The position numbers and the translations under genes were made by a program. From the NCBI GenBank assembly GCA_021781625.1, contig JAJXWL010000006.1, positions 1 to 13,238 of the forward strand: a DNA stretch of 13,238 nucleotides, in the 5' to 3' direction. The notes under the pieces were generated by a model. That model worked only from the letters and a program-made list of their open reading frames with translations, searched no databases and had not been told where the DNA came from. This document shows, in pieces, positions 1 through 7,292 of the stretch (position 1 is its first letter; each line of letters begins with the position of its first letter). This DNA is from a bacterium. GTDB lineage: Bacteria > Spirochaetota > Spirochaetia > JABEVK01.

Positions 1-432
1 TACAAAATCACCGCAACACCAATGCCAATTATGATTTCTGAGTTTAGAACCTAAATATCGCTCTAAAAGAGCCCCGACTGTATTTTCTGCACACATTGAT
101 TGCTGATGTGCAATCTTGATAAATTCGGATTGCTGAATATCATATCCGTATGCGACTTGTAAAACTATACTAACCATATCATCCGGTACAGTTCCTGGAA
201 TAGCAGGATAATCTGAGCTTCGATATGATTCAAAATACCTGTTTGCTAAAATCTTCAAACCATCCATGGTATTAACATTTGGTTTATTATTACCACGCCA
301 AGAAATAGCATCTGGATGTTCTGATAAATATGAACAAACTTGTGCAAAAGACTCAATTAGTCCTTCTTCGTTTCCTGTATTGTCTGACAATTCTGCTGCA
401 ATAAGCCTAGCCTGGTGCAAGTTGAAACTCAT
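1..432 (-). CDS. SinI-family type II restriction endonuclease, partial (probable first integron cassette gene)
   Basis: This is an open frame of 144 codons from an ATG at 432 to the window edge; its 3' part is missing. A good ribosome-binding site (AGGAGA at 442-437) fixes the start. The translation begins MSFNLHQARLIAAELSDN. Around residues 115-144 it has ENTVGALLERYLGSKL followed by NWHWCCGDFV. I recognise this from memory as the E-N-x-x-G-x-LLE-x-Y ... W-x-W-C-x-G motif of the SinI family (enzymes cutting GGWCC). I could not run a profile search. Base composition is clearly more AT-rich than the operons to the right, which fits acquired DNA. The gene lies on the same strand as, and just downstream of, an integron integrase, with a candidate recombination core site 45 bp upstream. 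I infer a gene cassette. A partner cytosine methyltransferase should exist further left. The family call is moderate; the reading frame is firm. Confidence 0.6.
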   Translation of the reverse strand, partial: MSFNLHQARLIAAELSDNTGNEEGLIESFAQVCSYLSEHPDAISWRGNNKPNVNTMDGLKILANRYFESYRSSDYPAIPGTVPDDMVSIVLQVAYGYDIQQSEFIKIAHQQSMCAENTVGALLERYLGSKLRNHNWHWCCGDFV

Positions 433-643
433 TTAATCTCCTAATCGCATTGTATTTATTTTCGCGCGAAGCGTCCACCCAACATTACTTAGCCTGTTCG
501 TTATAAGAGTCCGGTATCCAATTTATCCTGTTCCTGATAATATCGCGCTTTTCATAGCAACTACAAGGTAGTCTTGCCAAGATAACAATATACAAAGGCT
601 TAGCTTTAAAAATACCGATTTTATCTCGTTCGTCATACGGGTC
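433..643 (-). other. Candidate integron recombination region (attI-like)
   Basis: This is a 211-bp non-coding, AT-rich gap between the integrase stop and the first downstream ORF. On the minus strand it contains a GTTRRRY core site, GTTGGGT, at 483-477. Integrases of this family cut after the G, so the cassette would begin with TTGGGT about 50 bp before the ORF start. Three related 11-mers of the form TTA(T/G)C(C/T)(T/C)GTTC, read on the plus strand, lie at 489-499, 523-533 and 621-631. They may be integrase-binding repeats like the DR sites of attI1. A perfect 10-bp palindrome, TTCGCGCGAA, lies at 461-470. I found no paired R''/L'' and L'/R' arms here, so the site looks like attI and not attC. 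The sites are seen in the sequence; the role is inferred. Confidence 0.5.
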
Positions 644-1834
644 CTACATCAAATCCGCTGGGCTTTGTAGACCAAAAGGTCCACTATTCAGGACGTGGGT
701 GTAGATTTGCGTGGTTTTGACGTCGCTATGGCCCAGAAGCTCCTGAACAGTTCGTATGTCTGCCCCCTTCTGAATAAGGTGGGTAGCAAAGGAGTGGCGC
801 AAGGTGTGACAACTGGCTTTTTTGGGTATACCAGCATTCAGCAAGGCTTGATGAAAGGCTCGTTGCATCAACGATGGGTCCATATAATAGCGGCCTTGCT
901 TGCCTGTCTGGGCGTCCACCCAACGGTTAGCCTGCGGAAAAACCCATTGCCAACTCCAAGCCTTACTTGCAGCCGGATACTTTAAAGCTAAAGCATCGGG
1001 TAAAGGGACTTCACCAAAACCGTCACTAAGGTCCTGAAGGTGTTGTGCTTTTACAACGTCCAAGTGTTTTTTTAATTCACCTTTCAATGTCGCGGGTAGC
1101 ATTGTCCGACGGTCTTTATTACCTTTTCCTCGGTGAATAAAAATTTGATTTTGTTCAAAATCGATGTCTTGGATTCGCAACTGAAGACATTCTTGTAGGC
1201 GCATTCCTGTACCGTAGAGAAGTCGAGCAACCAGAAGTTTGTCTCCCGTCATATAGTCATAAATTTGTTTAATCTCGGTGATTGAAAGTACTACAGGCAG
1301 CCGTAGCGATTTCTTTGCCCGAATTAAGTTCTTCATCAATTCCAGGTCCTTGTCTAGGACATTACGAAAAAAGAACAAAATGGCGGCCAAGGCTTGGTTT
1401 TGAGTGGAGGCGCTAACGTAGTCTTTAGTGGCTAGGTTACTAAGAAATTGATTGACATCAAAAGTCGTCACCGAACGGGGGTCTTTTGTGCCCAGATGTC
1501 GAAAAAGGCGGTCAAGCCACGCACAATATATGTTAACAGTCCGCTGACTATAGTGTCTTGCTAACAGAGCAGTGCTATATTTTTTGCGAAGGTCAGCTTT
1601 CGTATCCTCTGGGGAAAGCTTCTGATTTTCGTCAAAGTTAAATATTTTAGTTTCGTAGAGGCTAGACAAAAGTTGGTCGATCGAAGCTTGCGAATCGCTA
1701 ATCGACCAGGTTTTGGTGGCAGGGTTCCAATGATTCGACGGAACACGATGCATAACGTTCACCAATGCTCTGTCAAAGGGGAATCTTACCTCCCACCGAC
1801 CTGGTTCTGAGCTACTTTTAATCTCAATATTCAT
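644..1834 (-). CDS. intI: Integron integrase (IntI-type tyrosine recombinase) with N-terminal extension
   Basis: Site-specific recombinase that inserts and excises gene cassettes at attI/attC. At 396 aa it is longer than IntI1 (337 aa). Residues about 80-180 are the SAM-like core-binding domain and 185-390 the catalytic domain. The tyrosine recombinase set is complete: R212 (GTGMRLQE), K237 (GKGNKDR), H343-x-x-R346 (CHTLRHSFATHL), H369 (LLGHSD) and Y378 (IYTHV). The segment from about 274 to 330 (PLPDALALKYPAA, then W-S-W-Q-W-V-F-P) is the extra patch that separates IntI from XerC/D, so this is not a plain Xer or phage integrase. Residues 1-75 are extra and include FPFDRALVNVMHRVP with a following W-N-P-x-x-x-x-W. 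The ATG start has no convincing Shine-Dalgarno; a promoter ends right before it. Downstream cassette DNA on the same strand gives the inverted layout known in Treponema. Confidence 0.93.
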   Translation of the reverse strand: MNIEIKSSSEPGRWEVRFPFDRALVNVMHRVPSNHWNPATKTWSISDSQASIDQLLSSLYETKIFNFDENQKLSPEDTKADLRKKYSTALLARHYSQRTVNIYCAWLDRLFRHLGTKDPRSVTTFDVNQFLSNLATKDYVSASTQNQALAAILFFFRNVLDKDLELMKNLIRAKKSLRLPVVLSITEIKQIYDYMTGDKLLVARLLYGTGMRLQECLQLRIQDIDFEQNQIFIHRGKGNKDRRTMLPATLKGELKKHLDVVKAQHLQDLSDGFGEVPLPDALALKYPAASKAWSWQWVFPQANRWVDAQTGKQGRYYMDPSLMQRAFHQALLNAGIPKKASCHTLRHSFATHLIQKGADIRTVQELLGHSDVKTTQIYTHVLNSGPFGLQSPADLM

Positions 1835-2393: not shown

Positions 2394-2467
<74 letters not shown>

Positions 2468-2480
2468 TCGGAACGCTTTT

Positions 2481-2509
2481 AACTTAGCGGAATACGCCAT
2501 TTTTGTCAA
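2481..2509 (-). promoter_or_regulatory. Strong sigma70-type promoter for tRNA-Val
   Basis: On the minus strand a perfect TTGACA (2509-2504), a 17-bp spacer and TAAGTT (2486-2481) are placed so that transcription starts about 7 nt before the mature tRNA 5' end. It is the best-matching promoter in the window. Confidence 0.7.
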
Positions 2510-2545
2510 GAACGGCATGAAGTTAGAAATCGAAACTCGCACACC

Positions 2546-2620
2546 TCATGACACCATCTCTTCAACAGTCATGACACTGATCCTTTGCTACTCATGAGTG
2601 AAAAGATCCATCTCTCATGA
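2546..2620. repeat. Four TCATGA palindromes at exact 23-bp spacing (degenerate 23-bp tandem repeat)
   Basis: TCATGA occurs at 2546-2551, 2569-2574, 2592-2597 and 2615-2620, each exactly 23 bp after the last. The palindrome extends to 8 bp (GTCATGAC) at the second site, 10 bp (ACTCATGAGT) at the third and 8 bp (CTCATGAG) at the fourth. Units 1-2 share TCATGACAC and units 3-4 share CTCATGAGTG. The spacers also share pieces: CCATCTCT in units 1 and 3, GATCC in 2 and 3, TTCAAC in 1 and 4. The array fills the gap between the cheY stop and the tRNA promoter. It may be a protein-binding array or a decayed tandem repeat. Confidence 0.7.
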
Positions 2621-2631
2621 GTGTTCAACCC

Positions 2632-3069
2632 TTACGATTGTAACGAATGAACGACACGTTCAAGAACCTTTTTCCGATCCAGTGGCTTGACGATGTAGTT
2701 TTTCGCGCCTAACAAAAGCGATTTTTTGACCAAATCCTGCTTTCCTAAGGCGCTTATCATGACTACTTTGGCATTTTTGTCAAACTGTATGATCTTTTCT
2801 AAAGCGGTGACGCCGTCCATCTTGGGCATAGTAATATCCATCGTCACCAAATCCACGTTGGGAAACAATTGTTTGTACTTTTCTAAGCCCTCTTCACCGT
2901 CACCGGCGGTTCCTACCACGTCAAAGCCTTCAGACGTTAAGATTTGCCCGATCTGCTTGGTCACAAACATCGAGTCATCGACAATAAGCACTCGAAAGGG
3001 TGACCCATCAGGACGGGTACCCTCGGGTGGACGCTCATTTATGGTAGGAAAATCGACTTTTGTCTTCAC
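2632..3069 (-). CDS. cheY: CheY chemotaxis response regulator
   Basis: Single receiver domain that carries the phosphate from CheA to the flagellar switch in the cytoplasm. Numbering from the GTG start used here (145 aa), the acidic pair is D31-D32 (LIVDDS), the phosphorylated Asp is D78 (VTMDITMPKMDG), the switch Ser is S106 (VMISA) and the Lys is K128 (VKPLD). There is no output domain. An N-terminal tail of about 20 residues with ERPPEGTRPDG precedes the domain, as I recall for spirochaete CheY. The start is chosen at GTG 3069 because GAGG lies 8 nt upstream and the codon follows the cheX stop by 4 nt. A TTG at 3096 would add nine residues and overlap cheX. It is the last gene of the operon, and I see no terminator after it. 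Confidence 0.95.
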   Translation of the reverse strand: MKTKVDFPTINERPPEGTRPDGSPFRVLIVDDSMFVTKQIGQILTSEGFDVVGTAGDGEEGLEKYKQLFPNVDLVTMDITMPKMDGVTALEKIIQFDKNAKVVMISALGKQDLVKKSLLLGAKNYIVKPLDRKKVLERVVHSLQS

Positions 3070-3073
3070 TTCT

Positions 3074-3538
3074 TTAACCTCGTTCTCGCACAGCAACGTT
3101 AATCTCGATATTCCCTAGTTCTGATTCCATCGGGACTATCAACGCTTCCACTTCTTGGTCAGAGACTTCCATATTGTCCCCCGAAATCAAGGCAGGGGGC
3201 GTTAGGTCAAAGCGAAAGCCTAAGTCATGCAACTTGGTAACGGCTTGAGCTGTGATCATATTGGCTAGCTCTGTGATGGTTGCCTTGGCCAGATCATCAA
3301 ATTCTTTTAACTCTTCCATGTTCATGGCCGATGCGATCTTAATGGCGGTAACCTTAGACATATCAAAAAGCACTCGACCTTCGACTTCTCCTGCCAAGCC
3401 TACGATGGCGGCTACCCCCATCACGGACTTCGTAGCGGATTTGAGGTACAAATTCCCCCGTTTAATCTCTACGCCCAAGACCTCAGATAGGACATTGTAA
3501 GCAGCCTCCACAAAGGGATTGATGTATTCCACGCGCAT
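3074..3538 (-). CDS. cheX: CheX, CheY-P phosphatase
   Basis: 154 aa, the usual CheX length. It dephosphorylates CheY-P and so resets the motor signal; spirochaetes use it in place of CheZ. The catalytic E-x-x-N is E90-L-A-N93 within TITELANMITAQAV. The N-terminus, YINPFVEAAYNVLSEVLG, is typical of the CheC/CheX/FliY fold, and only one such motif is present, as in CheX (CheC has two). A strong ribosome-binding site, GAGGAG, lies 5 nt before the ATG. The gene lies 40 nt after the cheW fusion and just before cheY, the spirochaete order cheA-cheW-cheX-cheY. Confidence 0.95.
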   Translation of the reverse strand: MRVEYINPFVEAAYNVLSEVLGVEIKRGNLYLKSATKSVMGVAAIVGLAGEVEGRVLFDMSKVTAIKIASAMNMEELKEFDDLAKATITELANMITAQAVTKLHDLGFRFDLTPPALISGDNMEVSDQEVEALIVPMESELGNIEINVAVRERG

Positions 3539-3578
3539 AGCAACTCCTCGTTATGATCTCCCGCTTTCTGCTCTTATC

Positions 3579-4886
3579 TTAGATGTTTTTCTGAAAGACC
3601 GTCCAGGGGCCTACAGCAACTCGCTTCCAGTCAGCTTCTTGTGGTGCCGTTTCGTTTTGTCCCAGGATCAAATACCCTTCGGGTTTTAACTTCTCATAAA
3701 ACTCGGCAAAAACCTTGTCACGGTCTTCAGGAGGTAAAAAGGACACAACGTCCCGGGCCACGATCAACGAGACATTAGAAATCGGATTCATGTTGCGAAT
3801 ATCATGAAACTCGAAAAAAACCTGGCTCTTAACCTCTGACGAAAACTGAGAACCCGCTTTTGTCGCCACTAAGAATGGTTGGTAAAAGCTCTCAATTTCC
3901 ACTTCTGGAAACGCGAGACTGGGAGCGATCGAGATATTCAAAAGATCATTGTCACTAGCCCAGATTTTTACTCCCACTTGGGGAAATTGCGTCCGGAACA
4001 GGACAGCCAAGCTGTAAGCTTCGTACCCCTTACCACAGCCGGGGTTCCACACCGAGACATTGTTGCCACTAAACCGCAAATCTTTGGCAAGAAGTTGAAT
4101 CTCTTGTTCTGTCCAAAAACGGGACGAGTTCCCTGTCAAAAATCCTTTCAAAAATTCTTCAGCTTCTTCTCGAGTTTGTAATTGAAAATCTTGGCCCTGG
4201 GCCTTACGGTCTGCCTTCCACTGAACTAAGCGTCCGCTAACCCATTCTCGGTTGATCGCCCCTACGTAAAACCCGGCTAGCGATCGCAGACTCTCAGAAA
4301 TAAATTGCAGGTCCAGGTCGCTCCCGGAAACTGTTGCCACCGGTGCAGGCGGAGGATCATCGGGTAAAACCTCAGATTTCAAAGCGGGTGTTTCTTCTGT
4401 CCTGGGCGGCTTGCCAAAAATCCGGTCAACATCCAAGAGAATAAACAGAATGTTGTTGTACTCGACAACTCCTTGGATGTACTGAATGTTAATGTCCCCA
4501 AACAGAGGATGCGGCGGTTGAATTGCTTCTTTTGACACACCCACAACCTTTTCGATGGTGTCAACAACCACCCCCAAAACCAGCTCATCCAACCGTAAAA
4601 TGATGATGTTTTCGAGGGCATGTTCTTCTCGGGTTTCAGCGGGAAGATGGAACATTATCCTGAGGTCAATAATCGGAATGATATCGCCGCGCAGGTTGTC
4701 TACGCCTCGAACAAAGTTAGGAGTATTGGGGACTTTGGTAAAATCGCCCGCCTTGCGGATCTCTTTTACTTTCATTATGTCTACCCCGTACTCCTTCCCA
4801 GCCAGGGTAAACGACACCATCTTAAAATCTACGCGTTGAACCTTTTCGGGGGTTACTGCTTTCGTGCTGGTAGGGGAAGTCGTCAT
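3579..4886 (-). CDS. cheW: CheW fused to a CheR-like domain (spirochaete coupling protein)
   Basis: 435 aa. Residues about 20-160 form a CheW domain (FTLAGKEYGVDIMKVKEI, then GVDNLRGDIIPIIDLR) that links receptors to CheA. After a Pro-rich linker (165-190), residues about 195-435 resemble the CheR methyltransferase: NPGCGKGYEAYSLA (281-294) for the SAM-binding loop, ASDND (310-314), and a C-terminal part ending KPEGYLILGQNE. Key CheR positions are changed. The T-x-F-F-R segment reads SSRFWTE, and the C-R-N-V motif reads ARDV. Methyl transfer is therefore doubtful, and a structural role in the receptor array is more likely. CheW proteins with a degenerate CheR-like tail are known from class F2 systems of Treponema. 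A good ribosome-binding site (GGAAGG) is present, and the start lies 9 nt after the cheA stop. Confidence 0.92.
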   Translation of the reverse strand: MTTSPTSTKAVTPEKVQRVDFKMVSFTLAGKEYGVDIMKVKEIRKAGDFTKVPNTPNFVRGVDNLRGDIIPIIDLRIMFHLPAETREEHALENIIILRLDELVLGVVVDTIEKVVGVSKEAIQPPHPLFGDINIQYIQGVVEYNNILFILLDVDRIFGKPPRTEETPALKSEVLPDDPPPAPVATVSGSDLDLQFISESLRSLAGFYVGAINREWVSGRLVQWKADRKAQGQDFQLQTREEAEEFLKGFLTGNSSRFWTEQEIQLLAKDLRFSGNNVSVWNPGCGKGYEAYSLAVLFRTQFPQVGVKIWASDNDLLNISIAPSLAFPEVEIESFYQPFLVATKAGSQFSSEVKSQVFFEFHDIRNMNPISNVSLIVARDVVSFLPPEDRDKVFAEFYEKLKPEGYLILGQNETAPQEADWKRVAVGPWTVFQKNI

Positions 4887-4895
4887 GATACCTTC

Positions 4896-7292
4896 CTATT
4901 TTGTCCAAGTCTCGCGTTGTTGTCGGGCAGTTCGCTCGTTACGAAGCCCTAAATCTAGAAGCTGACTCACATCGATGATAAGCGAAACCTTACCGTCACC
5001 CAAGATCGTCGCGCCGGCTATTCCGGGGGTGTTGGTATATTGGTCCTTGAGGGGCTTGATGACCACGTCTTCTTCGCCGATCAGGGCGTCTACCACAAGG
5101 CCGATTTTCTTGTCGCCGCTTCCTACAACAACCACGTAGTGGAACGGGACATTCTCGTCCGCTTCAATGCCAAACAAACGATTCAACCGCATCAACGAAA
5201 CCACGTCTTTGCGGACATTAAAGACTTCATAGTTATCAATAACCTTAATTTCGGACGCTTTGATCCTGTGGCTGTCTATGACCGACGTAATAGGAATGGC
5301 ATAGACTTCACGGCCCACACGCACCAAGAGCCCTTGAATGATAGCCAAGGTGAGCGGAAGCTTAATGGTAAACTTGCTCCCCAGCCCCTTCTCAGACCAA
5401 ATACTCACCGTACCGTTAAGCTTTTCAATCTGCTTGCGAACGACGTCAAGGCCCACGCCTCGTCCCGAAATATTGGTGACTTTTTCAGCGGTTGAAAACC
5501 CTGGCTCAAAGATGAGGTTAAAAGCTTCGACATCCGAAAGAATCTTTCCTGGATGCACCAGACCTCGTTCTACGCCCTTGCGCTTGACCGCTTCGACATC
5601 AATGCCGTTTCCATCATCAGAAATTTCAATGACAATCATATTGCCTTCGTTGCGAGCCGCAAGGACCACTCGACCTTCTTCAGGTTTACCCCGCTCCTGC
5701 CGTACCGAGGCGCTTTCAATACCGTGGTCGATAGCGTTCCTAACGCAGTGAATCAACGGATCCAGCAAATCTTCAATCACCGACTTATCAAGCTCTGTTT
5801 CTTCGCCGTCAATGACAAGGCTGATTTTTTTGTTGAGCGTCTTGGATAAATCTCGAACCAGTCGGGGAAAGCGTGAAAAGATTTGCGAAATCGGTACCAT
5901 CCGAATGCGCAGGACACCTTCGTGGAGTTCACCGATGATGCGCCCCAAATTTTGGGCGGTTCCTCGAAAGGTGGCTACTGTTCCCTTGAGCTGTGACTCA
6001 ACCGGGTCAAACAGCGTAAAGGTCTTTCCATAGCGTTCTTGAAGGTCCTTTTTGAGCTCTTTGACGGTTTTCCCTTTTTGCAGTTCATCCAAGTACTGCG
6101 GCAGGGCTTCTAAAAGATCTTTAAGATCGGTGCGAAAGGCCAACGACGCTTCTTGAAGGTGCGTTAGGGCCTCACCAAACTGGTTCGAGATTTGACTAAA
6201 CGTGGCCTTGCTAATGACGGTTTCGCTGACCAAATTCAAAAGGTTGTCGATGCGCTTCGAATCCACCCTCAGAATCGAACCGACCACCGCAGTCGAAGTT
6301 TTTTTCCCTTCTTTTGCCGCTTCGTGTTCCTCGGGAGGTGGCAAATCTTCTTTTACCGATTCACTTGATTCCCCCTGCGAAACAGAAGGACCGGGGACTG
6401 ACGTCGGAACTTTCGGGGATTCAGCCGTCTTTGCTTGCGGCGGTTCAGGAGCTTTTGCTTTCGCTGGGGCAGGTAAAACCTCTTTTTCTAAGTCCTGAAC
6501 GGTTACTTCGGTTGTTACATCAGGAATTTGGCATTTTTTCTGAACGACCTGGGGGTCTTTGTCTAAGGCGACAAAGTATTCAACTGTAGGCCAAAACTGA
6601 TCTTCATAAAGTTTGTCAAATTCGGGAATTGTTTTGAGTACGGAGCCTTGCTCTTTCAAGACCGCAAAAACCTGAATTCCCCCCACCGAATTCATGGGGT
6701 TAGCCTCGTCAAACTCAACAATCACGCGGTAGATCGGTCGACCATCGGCCGCTTGTTTGAGCTCAAGCACTTCGTATTCACTCAAGGACGATGCCGACTT
6801 TGTCGGCGAGGTGGCAGACCGGGCTGGGGTGGTAGGCGTAGGCGCAGCCTTTGCTTGAGCGGTTGGCGCTTTGGGTTTGGCTTTTTGTTCGGCATTAGTT
6901 GCCAAAAAGCTCGTTAATCGATTTTTCAGGCCCCCAATATCTTCTTCATAAACTTCGCCCTCTAAACGGGCCTCAAGCATAAGTTTAATCACGTCAATGG
7001 CTTTCAAAAGCGTATCAACAACCGCCTCAGAAACCTTAACAGCGCCGGTTCGGATTTCATCGAGCACATCCTCGACCACATGGGTGAACTCAGAAAGTTC
7101 AAACATCTGAACGGTGGCGGCACCCCCTTTTAAGGTATGCGCCGCACGAAAGATCTCGTCGACGGCGTCCTTACTGCGGGGATCATTTTCTAGAACCAGG
7201 ATATTTTGTTCTAGAGTATCGACTTGCCCTTGGGCTTCCGCGAAGAAGTCCTTTAAGAGCTCTTCATTGTTCGGATCCAGATAGTCGCTCAT
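4896..7292 (-). CDS. cheA: CheA chemotaxis histidine kinase
   Basis: 798 aa, cytoplasmic, autophosphorylates in the receptor array and phosphorylates CheY. P1 (1-130) has the phosphorylated H52 in FRAAHTLKGGAA. An Ala/Pro-rich linker (135-170) leads to a P2-like domain (172-255), then a second Pro-rich linker (272-335). P3 dimerisation (338-465) contains an insert of roughly 45-50 residues (about 388-438) compared with Thermotoga CheA. P4 ATPase follows: N box with N519 (HCVRNAIDHG), G1 DDGNGID (559-565), G2 GRGVGLDVV (610-618) and GLGSKFTIKLPLTLA. P5, the CheW-like regulatory domain, covers about 645-785. The ATG at 7292 begins with MSDYLDPNNEELLKDFF, normal for P1; the Shine-Dalgarno is weak. 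It is the first gene of the chemotaxis operon. Confidence 0.97.
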   Translation of the reverse strand: MSDYLDPNNEELLKDFFAEAQGQVDTLEQNILVLENDPRSKDAVDEIFRAAHTLKGGAATVQMFELSEFTHVVEDVLDEIRTGAVKVSEAVVDTLLKAIDVIKLMLEARLEGEVYEEDIGGLKNRLTSFLATNAEQKAKPKAPTAQAKAAPTPTTPARSATSPTKSASSLSEYEVLELKQAADGRPIYRVIVEFDEANPMNSVGGIQVFAVLKEQGSVLKTIPEFDKLYEDQFWPTVEYFVALDKDPQVVQKKCQIPDVTTEVTVQDLEKEVLPAPAKAKAPEPPQAKTAESPKVPTSVPGPSVSQGESSESVKEDLPPPEEHEAAKEGKKTSTAVVGSILRVDSKRIDNLLNLVSETVISKATFSQISNQFGEALTHLQEASLAFRTDLKDLLEALPQYLDELQKGKTVKELKKDLQERYGKTFTLFDPVESQLKGTVATFRGTAQNLGRIIGELHEGVLRIRMVPISQIFSRFPRLVRDLSKTLNKKISLVIDGEETELDKSVIEDLLDPLIHCVRNAIDHGIESASVRQERGKPEEGRVVLAARNEGNMIVIEISDDGNGIDVEAVKRKGVERGLVHPGKILSDVEAFNLIFEPGFSTAEKVTNISGRGVGLDVVRKQIEKLNGTVSIWSEKGLGSKFTIKLPLTLAIIQGLLVRVGREVYAIPITSVIDSHRIKASEIKVIDNYEVFNVRKDVVSLMRLNRLFGIEADENVPFHYVVVVGSGDKKIGLVVDALIGEEDVVIKPLKDQYTNTPGIAGATILGDGKVSLIIDVSQLLDLGLRNERTARQQRETWTK

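What the first reader, a model, noticed from the sequence alone, without database searches (positions are those of the whole stretch)
1..1834. Inverted integron: integrase transcribed toward, and in the same direction as, its first cassette
In most integrons intI is transcribed away from the cassettes and attI lies at the 5' side of intI. Here the integrase (1834 to 644), the candidate core site (483-477) and the first downstream ORF (432 to 1) all run in the same direction, and the recombination region lies beyond the 3' end of intI. This inverted design is known from Treponema denticola. It means the intI promoter could read through into the cassettes, so integrase and cassette expression may be linked.
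Basis: partly seen in the sequence, partly recalled or inferred. Interest (0 to 1): 0.75.

Follow-up and report, generated by a model that had tools for sequence, protein, structure and literature searches.

The report
Reverse integron with branched-DNA-domain integrase
This is the start of a gene-capturing integron in an uncultured spirochaete, built in the known back-to-front way, and its recombinase carries an extra front domain that resembles a DNA-fork-recognition domain of a human repair enzyme.

Summary
intI (1834-644), the core site GTTGGGT (483-477) and the first ORF (432-1) all run on the minus strand. IntI is an integron integrase (TIGR02249, 422 bits, cut-off 265). The first cassette encodes a SinI-type restriction endonuclease cut off by the end of the sequence. 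No attC lies in the window, but of 36 related Spirochaetota loci 23 have attC-like sites only on the 3' side of intI, 1 only on the 5' side and 12 none. Around them 163 of 169 ORFs run with intI. Reverse integrons are known, so the layout is a new member of a known kind, probably outside Treponema. Linked expression of intI and cassettes is not shown.

New here: the first 68 residues of this IntI form a domain that resembles SMARCAL1's HARP domain. That is its top PDB match by sequence profile (E 0.011) and by Foldseek (E 5e-3), but its Pfam score is just under the cut-off. The domain marks one IntI clade nested inside the reverse clade. I propose that it reads branched DNA such as folded attC; that function is untested.

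The parts
644..1834 (-). intI, integron integrase, 396 aa
   Evidence: TIGR02249 422 bits vs cut-off 265; PF00589 139 bits; R212 and Y378 invariant, H343, R346, H369 nearly so in 120 aligned proteins (that these are the catalytic residues is recalled)
1631..1834 (-). HARP-like N-terminal domain of IntI (residues 1-68)
   Evidence: PF07443 20.3 bits in the whole protein, 23.5 alone, cut-off 25; best PDB sequence-profile match 4o66, E 0.011; Foldseek ranks 1-2 are 4o66, E 5.2e-3 and 6.3e-3; model pLDDT 90.4
1343..1591 (-). core-binding SAM-like domain of IntI
   Evidence: PF13495, residues 82-164
689..1279 (-). catalytic domain of IntI
   Evidence: PF00589, residues 186-382
477..643 (-). putative attI region between the intI stop and the end of the core
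   Evidence: position and repeat; several relatives carry a TTATAC(G/T)GAT-like motif in the same region
523..542 (-). attI direct repeat, distal copy
   Evidence: 16 of 20 identical to 508-489; 0 of 60 shuffles as good
489..508 (-). attI direct repeat, copy next to the core
477..483 (-). core site GTTGGGT; inferred crossover after the G
1..482 (-). first gene cassette, cut by the window end (left boundary inferred)
   Evidence: starts TTGGGTGGACGC..., like cassette starts of relatives
1..432 (-). cassette ORF, SinI-type restriction endonuclease, first 144 aa
   Evidence: PF09570 161.9 bits; closest protein 94% identical, 230 aa
1841..1869 (-). promoter-like site just upstream of intI (consensus match only)
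   Evidence: 9 of 12; 7 promoter-like sites in 1-2700 against 4.7 (sd 2.0) in shuffles
449..477 (-). weak promoter-like site at the cassette start (consensus match only)
   Evidence: 9 of 12

Best explanation
This is the platform end of a chromosomal reverse (inverted) integron of a Treponematales-like spirochaete, probably outside Treponema. IntI binds attI beyond the 3' end of its own gene and inserts circular cassettes at the G/TT of GTTGGGT, so that cassette ORFs run in the same direction as intI; the first cassette carries a SinI-like restriction endonuclease. This IntI belongs to a clade whose integrase begins with a HARP-like domain. Shown by comparison: integrase family, layout, clade, domain resemblance. 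Inferred: attI function, the crossover point, further cassettes beyond position 1, and the role of the HARP-like domain, most likely an added contact that reads branched or hairpin DNA such as folded single-stranded attC.
For: IntI family score. Core and repeat. In the 36 Spirochaetota loci L111-L146, attC-like sites only downstream in 23, only upstream in 1, none in 12; three shuffles of each side over 200 nt gave no hit in these loci (4 hits in all 139 loci). One of these sites lies at the published T. brennaborense attC coordinates. ORF strands in 22 reverse loci: 163 with intI, 6 against; 8 classic loci that I chose: 5 with, 41 against. Careful tree of 75 IntIs: one change of orientation over 44 scored rows; domain rows in one set at 99/96 with one loss. 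HARP likeness by three routes: Pfam, weak, PDB sequence profile, fold.
Confidence: 0.88

Rival explanations
1. The integron is real, but the N-terminal domain is not a DNA-structure reader. It is a dimerisation or regulatory domain with a common alpha-beta fold that resembles HARP by chance.
Against: SMARCAL1 HARP is the first match both by sequence profile (E 0.011; next 1.4) and by Foldseek (E 5.2e-3; next other protein 0.21). W36 is invariant and W43 nearly invariant in 120 proteins.
Confidence: 0.3
2. Expression is linked: one transcript from the intI promoter reads through attI into the cassettes, and no separate cassette promoter exists in this organism.
For: Same direction; no terminator-like and no sigma-70-like site found in 484-643 on the minus strand; a promoter-like site before intI.
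Against: A cassette promoter is placed between intI and the first cassette in Treponema reverse integrons (PMC7691350, passages); the region from saliva clone TMB4 was active in an E. coli reporter (PMC6557892, passages). Some related loci show a TATAAT-like box shortly before the core (by eye, not tested). The consensus scan is weak evidence either way.
Confidence: 0.25
3. Not an active integron: a solitary intI with a chance heptamer, followed by an ordinary gene.
For: No attC in the window. Relatives L138, L143 and L145 show no attC-like site in 6.9-8.9 kb downstream. T. brennaborense has only one (PMC3607928).
Against: Open and conserved intI, attI-like repeat, core at the distance seen in relatives, and the sequence ends soon after intI, as in 8 of the 12 related loci without attC, whose contigs end within 1.5 kb.
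Confidence: 0.05

Closest known systems
Reverse (inverted) integrons of Treponema (T. denticola, T. vincentii, T. succinifaciens, T. brennaborense)
   Same: intI transcribed toward attI and in the direction of the cassettes (PMC3607928, sections 3 and 8 read); attI with two direct repeats between intI and the first cassette (PMC7691350, passages)
   Different: IntI is 49-52% identical to those of five named Treponema contigs. The HARP-like domain is also present in 4 of the 5 named Treponema contigs; I found no report of it.
Reverse integrons of Planctomycetota (cf. Blastopirellula marina, named in PMC6557892, passage)
   Same: attC-like sites 3' of intI in 5 of 40 fetched loci as I scored them; same reverse set in the careful tree (93/92)
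   Different: No HARP-like N-terminus found by my profile in the 40 loci
HARP substrate-recognition domain of SMARCAL1 (PF07443; PDB 4o66)
   Same: Fold of the model and an aligned motif around the two conserved tryptophans
   Different: Fused to a tyrosine recombinase, not to an SNF2 motor; identity 18-24%; Pfam score below the cut-off
SinI restriction endonuclease family (PF09570)
   Same: 161.9 bits over residues 14-144, all that is present
   Different: Carried as the first cassette; a partner methyltransferase is not visible because the sequence ends

Membership tests
Integron | IntI with the integron-integrase sequence signature | tested here: met
   TIGR02249 422 bits, cut-off 265
Integron | attI next to intI with a GTTRRRY core | tested here: met
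   Sequence only: 483-477 with a direct repeat; recombination itself not tested
Integron | attC sites ending the cassettes | not testable with these tools
   The window ends inside the first cassette; no attC-like site in the 646 nt after intI; no whole genome held. Present in relatives
Reverse integron | Cassettes at the 3' side of intI and on its strand | tested here: met
   First ORF on the same strand; relatives 23 of 36 attC downstream only, 1 upstream only, 12 none; ORFs 163 to 6 in 22 loci
Reverse integron | IntI falls in the reverse IntI clade | tested here: met
   Careful tree, 75 of 121 rows: domain set 99/96 inside the reverse set 93/92
HARP domain PF07443 | Score above Pfam's gathering cut-off | tested here: not met
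   20.3 bits full length, 23.5 alone, cut-off 25. I therefore call it HARP-like, not a HARP member
HARP domain PF07443 | HARP fold | tested here: inconclusive
HARP domain PF07443 | Binds branched DNA | not tested
   Needs a bench assay
SinI restriction endonuclease | PF09570 match above cut-off | tested here: met
   161.9 bits, cut-off 22
SinI restriction endonuclease | Cleaves GGWCC (specificity recalled, not from a call) | not tested
   -

The most novel reading that the evidence does not exclude
A single gain put a SMARCAL1-like, branched-DNA-reading domain onto the recombinase of reverse integrons, giving IntI a second contact with the junction of folded single-stranded attC (or with stalled forks where attC strands become single-stranded), so that these integrases choose or fold their substrate differently from class 1 or Vibrio IntI.
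Probability: 0.4. Interest if true: 0.75.

Novelty: new variant of a known kind. Interest (0 to 1): 0.52.

Why it matters
Integron integrases are unusual tyrosine recombinases because they act on folded single-stranded attC (established knowledge). An integrase clade that carries its own domain of the kind found in fork-remodelling enzymes would give a simple handle, domain removal, on how IntI finds hairpins in cells. The careful tree also suggests an order of events: reversal of the integron first, shared with Planctomycetota, then gain of the domain. Both kinds of integron, classic and reverse, occur in the phylum searched around a Treponema genome.

Tried and rejected
HARP-like domain as the cause of the reverse layout: rejected, since Planctomycetota loci scored as reverse show no such domain.

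tRNA-associated integration as a rule: rejected; 3 of 39 loci (window, L111-L148) have a tRNA within 2 kb upstream of intI.

Extending the window: no whole genome is held, and the session allowed no metagenome scans. The window's own full-length SinI protein was not among 63 hits, which fits a contig end at position 1 but does not prove it.

Where else the N-terminal domain occurs: a search with residues 1-70 of P0017 gave 3 IntI proteins, the query included, from 17 candidates, so the question stays open.

A third attI repeat near 639: the 12-nt repeat that includes it was reached by 18 of 60 shuffles.

Orientation labels set by hand for the trees: single hits in L147, L162, L270 and L274 were judged not attC (plain palindromes or AT-rich sequence) and left unscored; L121 was left unscored; L257 was scored reverse (3 sites downstream) despite one terminator-like upstream palindrome. 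L076, L059 and L290 also had doubtful hits and were not tree rows. The first, quick tree had 121 rows and needed 2 orientation changes over 62 scored rows and 5 changes of the domain. The second, careful tree used 75 of the 121 rows; I dropped 46 by hand (near-copies, long branches and rows without orientation). It needed 1 orientation change over 44 scored rows and 2 of the domain; for it I scored L117, L141 and L146 as having the domain. In L117 the domain is in the core's frame with one stop codon inside; in L146 it is whole in another frame; in L141 about its first half is in another frame. In L144 none was seen in the 900 nt upstream.

No shuffles were run for the Planctomycetota and Chloroflexota loci. 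Verrucomicrobiota were not searched (unanswered, not repeated). The phylum of L058 gave only 2 genomes. Phylum names of G genomes are inferred from the titles of the named loci L001, L029 and L041.

Papers: no held paper has both 'integron integrase' and 'HARP domain' or 'HARP domain' and 'tyrosine recombinase'; 'integron' with SMARCAL1 gave one outbreak paper with one mention of each (listing only); a wider search gave 64 papers, 10 listed, none read for this except PMC3607928 and passages of PMC8352920. Subscription papers, among them the original T. denticola description and the SMARCAL1 HARP structure paper, were not read (seen only in reference lists).

Full report
WHAT IS THERE. On the minus strand the window holds, in order, tRNA-Val(GAC) (2467-2394), an ORF without a Pfam match (2299-1910), intI (1834-644), a 167-nt stretch that ends in GTTGGGT (483-477), and an ORF from 432 running off the window at position 1. 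IntI scores 422 bits for TIGR02249 integron integrase against a cut-off of 265. R212 and Y378 are invariant and H343, R346 and H369 nearly invariant in 120 aligned proteins (their catalytic role is recalled). The end ORF is a SinI-type restriction endonuclease (PF09570, 161.9 bits); its nearest protein is 94% identical and 230 aa long, so about 86 codons and the attC are missing from the window.

THE RECOMBINATION SITE. The 167 nt from the intI stop to the end of the core hold a direct repeat, TATTATCAGGAACAGGATAA (542-523) and TCTTATAACGAACAGGCTAA (508-489), 16 of 20 identical, reached by 0 of 60 shuffles; repeat lengths of 12, 14 and 17 were reached by 18, 1 and 1 of 60. GTTRRRYNGAC stands at 483-473. 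The same pattern is found within 450 nt after intI in 10 of 35 loci of this IntI group, window included, against a mean of 0.18 loci in shuffles; in 7 of these 10, window included, it starts 160-163 nt after the first base of the stop codon, but five of the 7 are close kin. The other 25 of the 35 lack this strict pattern; many have a near variant such as GTTATGTGGAC (by eye). Cassettes of a named Treponema contig begin in that way after their attC (L005). One caution: GTTGGGTGGACGC also stands inside intI (924-912), and 13-mer repeats in the window are not above shuffles.

ORIENTATION IN RELATIVES. I searched 392 genomes of the phylum of a Treponema genome; 60 have an IntI match at E 1e-40, in 63 places. 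I fetched the surroundings of 58 of the 63. A simple attC detector (R'' RYYYAAC, R' GTTRRRY, complementary arms with bulges) found 7 sites in 9 kb of the genome that matches T. succinifaciens by coordinates, and the one published T. brennaborense site. Of the 36 loci L111-L146, which fall in one IntI clade, 23 have attC-like sites only downstream of intI, 1 (L121) only upstream and 12 none; for 8 of the 12 the contig ends within 1.5 kb. Several of the 36 are near-copies, so they are not 36 independent cases. Of 15 Spirochaetota loci of other IntI types (L149-L152, L154-L163, L165), 6 have sites only upstream (L150 has 9), 1 has a single doubtful site downstream (L162), and 8 have none. Of the remaining 7 fetched loci, mostly partial or broken intI, L148, L153, L166, L167 and L168 have sites downstream, L147 one doubtful site upstream, L164 none. 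Among the 75 named loci L006-L080 (mainly Proteobacteria), 16 have sites only upstream (one of them, L059, doubtful), 1 on both sides, none only downstream. Three shuffles per side gave 4 hits over all 139 loci. ORFs of 70 aa or more up to the last attC are on the intI strand in 163 of 169 cases in 22 reverse loci with at least two sites, and in 5 of 46 cases in 8 classic loci that I chose.

PLACE OF THE WINDOW. Among the 120 listed IntI relatives, four are labelled Rectinemataceae and one Treponemataceae. I read this as a Treponematales-like lineage, probably outside Treponema, not placed more finely. The che genes are followed by tRNA-Val(GAC) in 6 of 7 fetched relatives; no IntI match appeared in the stretches held, which are under 1 kb beyond the tRNA for two of them. 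So the integron sits at a lineage-specific place.

HISTORY. In a careful tree of 75 IntIs (core region) the rows with the domain form one set (99/96) with one loss, L144; this set lies inside a larger set (93/92, not starred) that also holds the Planctomycetota reverse integrons without the domain, and orientation changes once over 44 scored rows. The first, quick tree of 121 rows needed two orientation changes over 62 scored rows, so one origin of the reverse layout is favoured, not proven. Three of four apparent losses of the domain are broken genes: L117 has it in frame with one stop codon, L146 whole in another frame, L141 about half of it in another frame. Chloroflexota loci (20 fetched) show no such domain; 6 have sites upstream, 1 a doubtful site downstream, 13 none. 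Of 40 Planctomycetota loci I scored 5 as reverse (one of them, L257, also has a terminator-like upstream hit) and 9 as classic; 2 had single doubtful hits and 24 none.

HOW IT WORKS. Shown by comparison: family, layout, clade. Inferred: IntI exchanges at the G/TT of GTTGGGT; new cassettes enter there; the SinI cassette is the latest. Expression: no terminator-like and no sigma-70-like site was found between intI and the core, so read-through is possible. But in Treponema reverse integrons a cassette promoter is placed there (PMC7691350, passages), and one such region, from saliva clone TMB4 and not identical to T. denticola's, was active in E. coli, in both directions (PMC6557892, passages). 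For the domain I propose a DNA-structure reader. SMARCAL1's HARP is listed among the domains of that fork-remodelling enzyme in a review (PMC8141627, passage); that it binds branched DNA is recalled, and the structure paper was seen only in a reference list.

KNOWN OR NEW. [quoted passage not shown] PMC3607928 held Treponema to be the only spirochaete clade with integrons; this window and the classic-type Spirochaetota loci widen that, though a later paper already models Spirochaetes attC sites as a phylum (PMC8352920, passages). I found no report of the HARP-like domain in the searches.

Noticed in passing
window 912-924 and 471-483 (-): The 13-mer GTTGGGTGGACGC occurs at the attI core and also inside intI, both preceded by CAGGCTAA a few bases upstream; 13-mer repeats alone are not above shuffles.
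   Followed up: partly
L121, about 260 nt upstream of intI: A genuine-looking attC lies upstream of a reverse-clade intI and points the same way, with no attC-like site found in 9 kb downstream; intI there may have been moved into or behind an array.
   Followed up: partly
L149-L165: Spirochaetota also hold classic-orientation integrons with a different IntI lacking the HARP-like domain (e.g. L150 with 9 attC-like sites upstream).
   Followed up: partly
window 1-432: A restriction endonuclease as first cassette without a visible partner methyltransferase; a partner would have to lie left of position 1 or elsewhere.
   Followed up: no
window 2394-7292: The che genes followed by tRNA-Val(GAC) recur in 6 of 7 fetched relatives without an integron in the stretch held.
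   Followed up: partly
L117, L141, L146: Reverse-clade intI genes whose HARP-like N-terminus is broken off from the core by a stop (L117) or a frame change (L141, L146); sequencing error or decay, described only.
   Followed up: partly
L138, L143, L145: Reverse-clade intI with no attC-like site in 6.9-8.9 kb downstream, possibly cassette-less.
   Followed up: no
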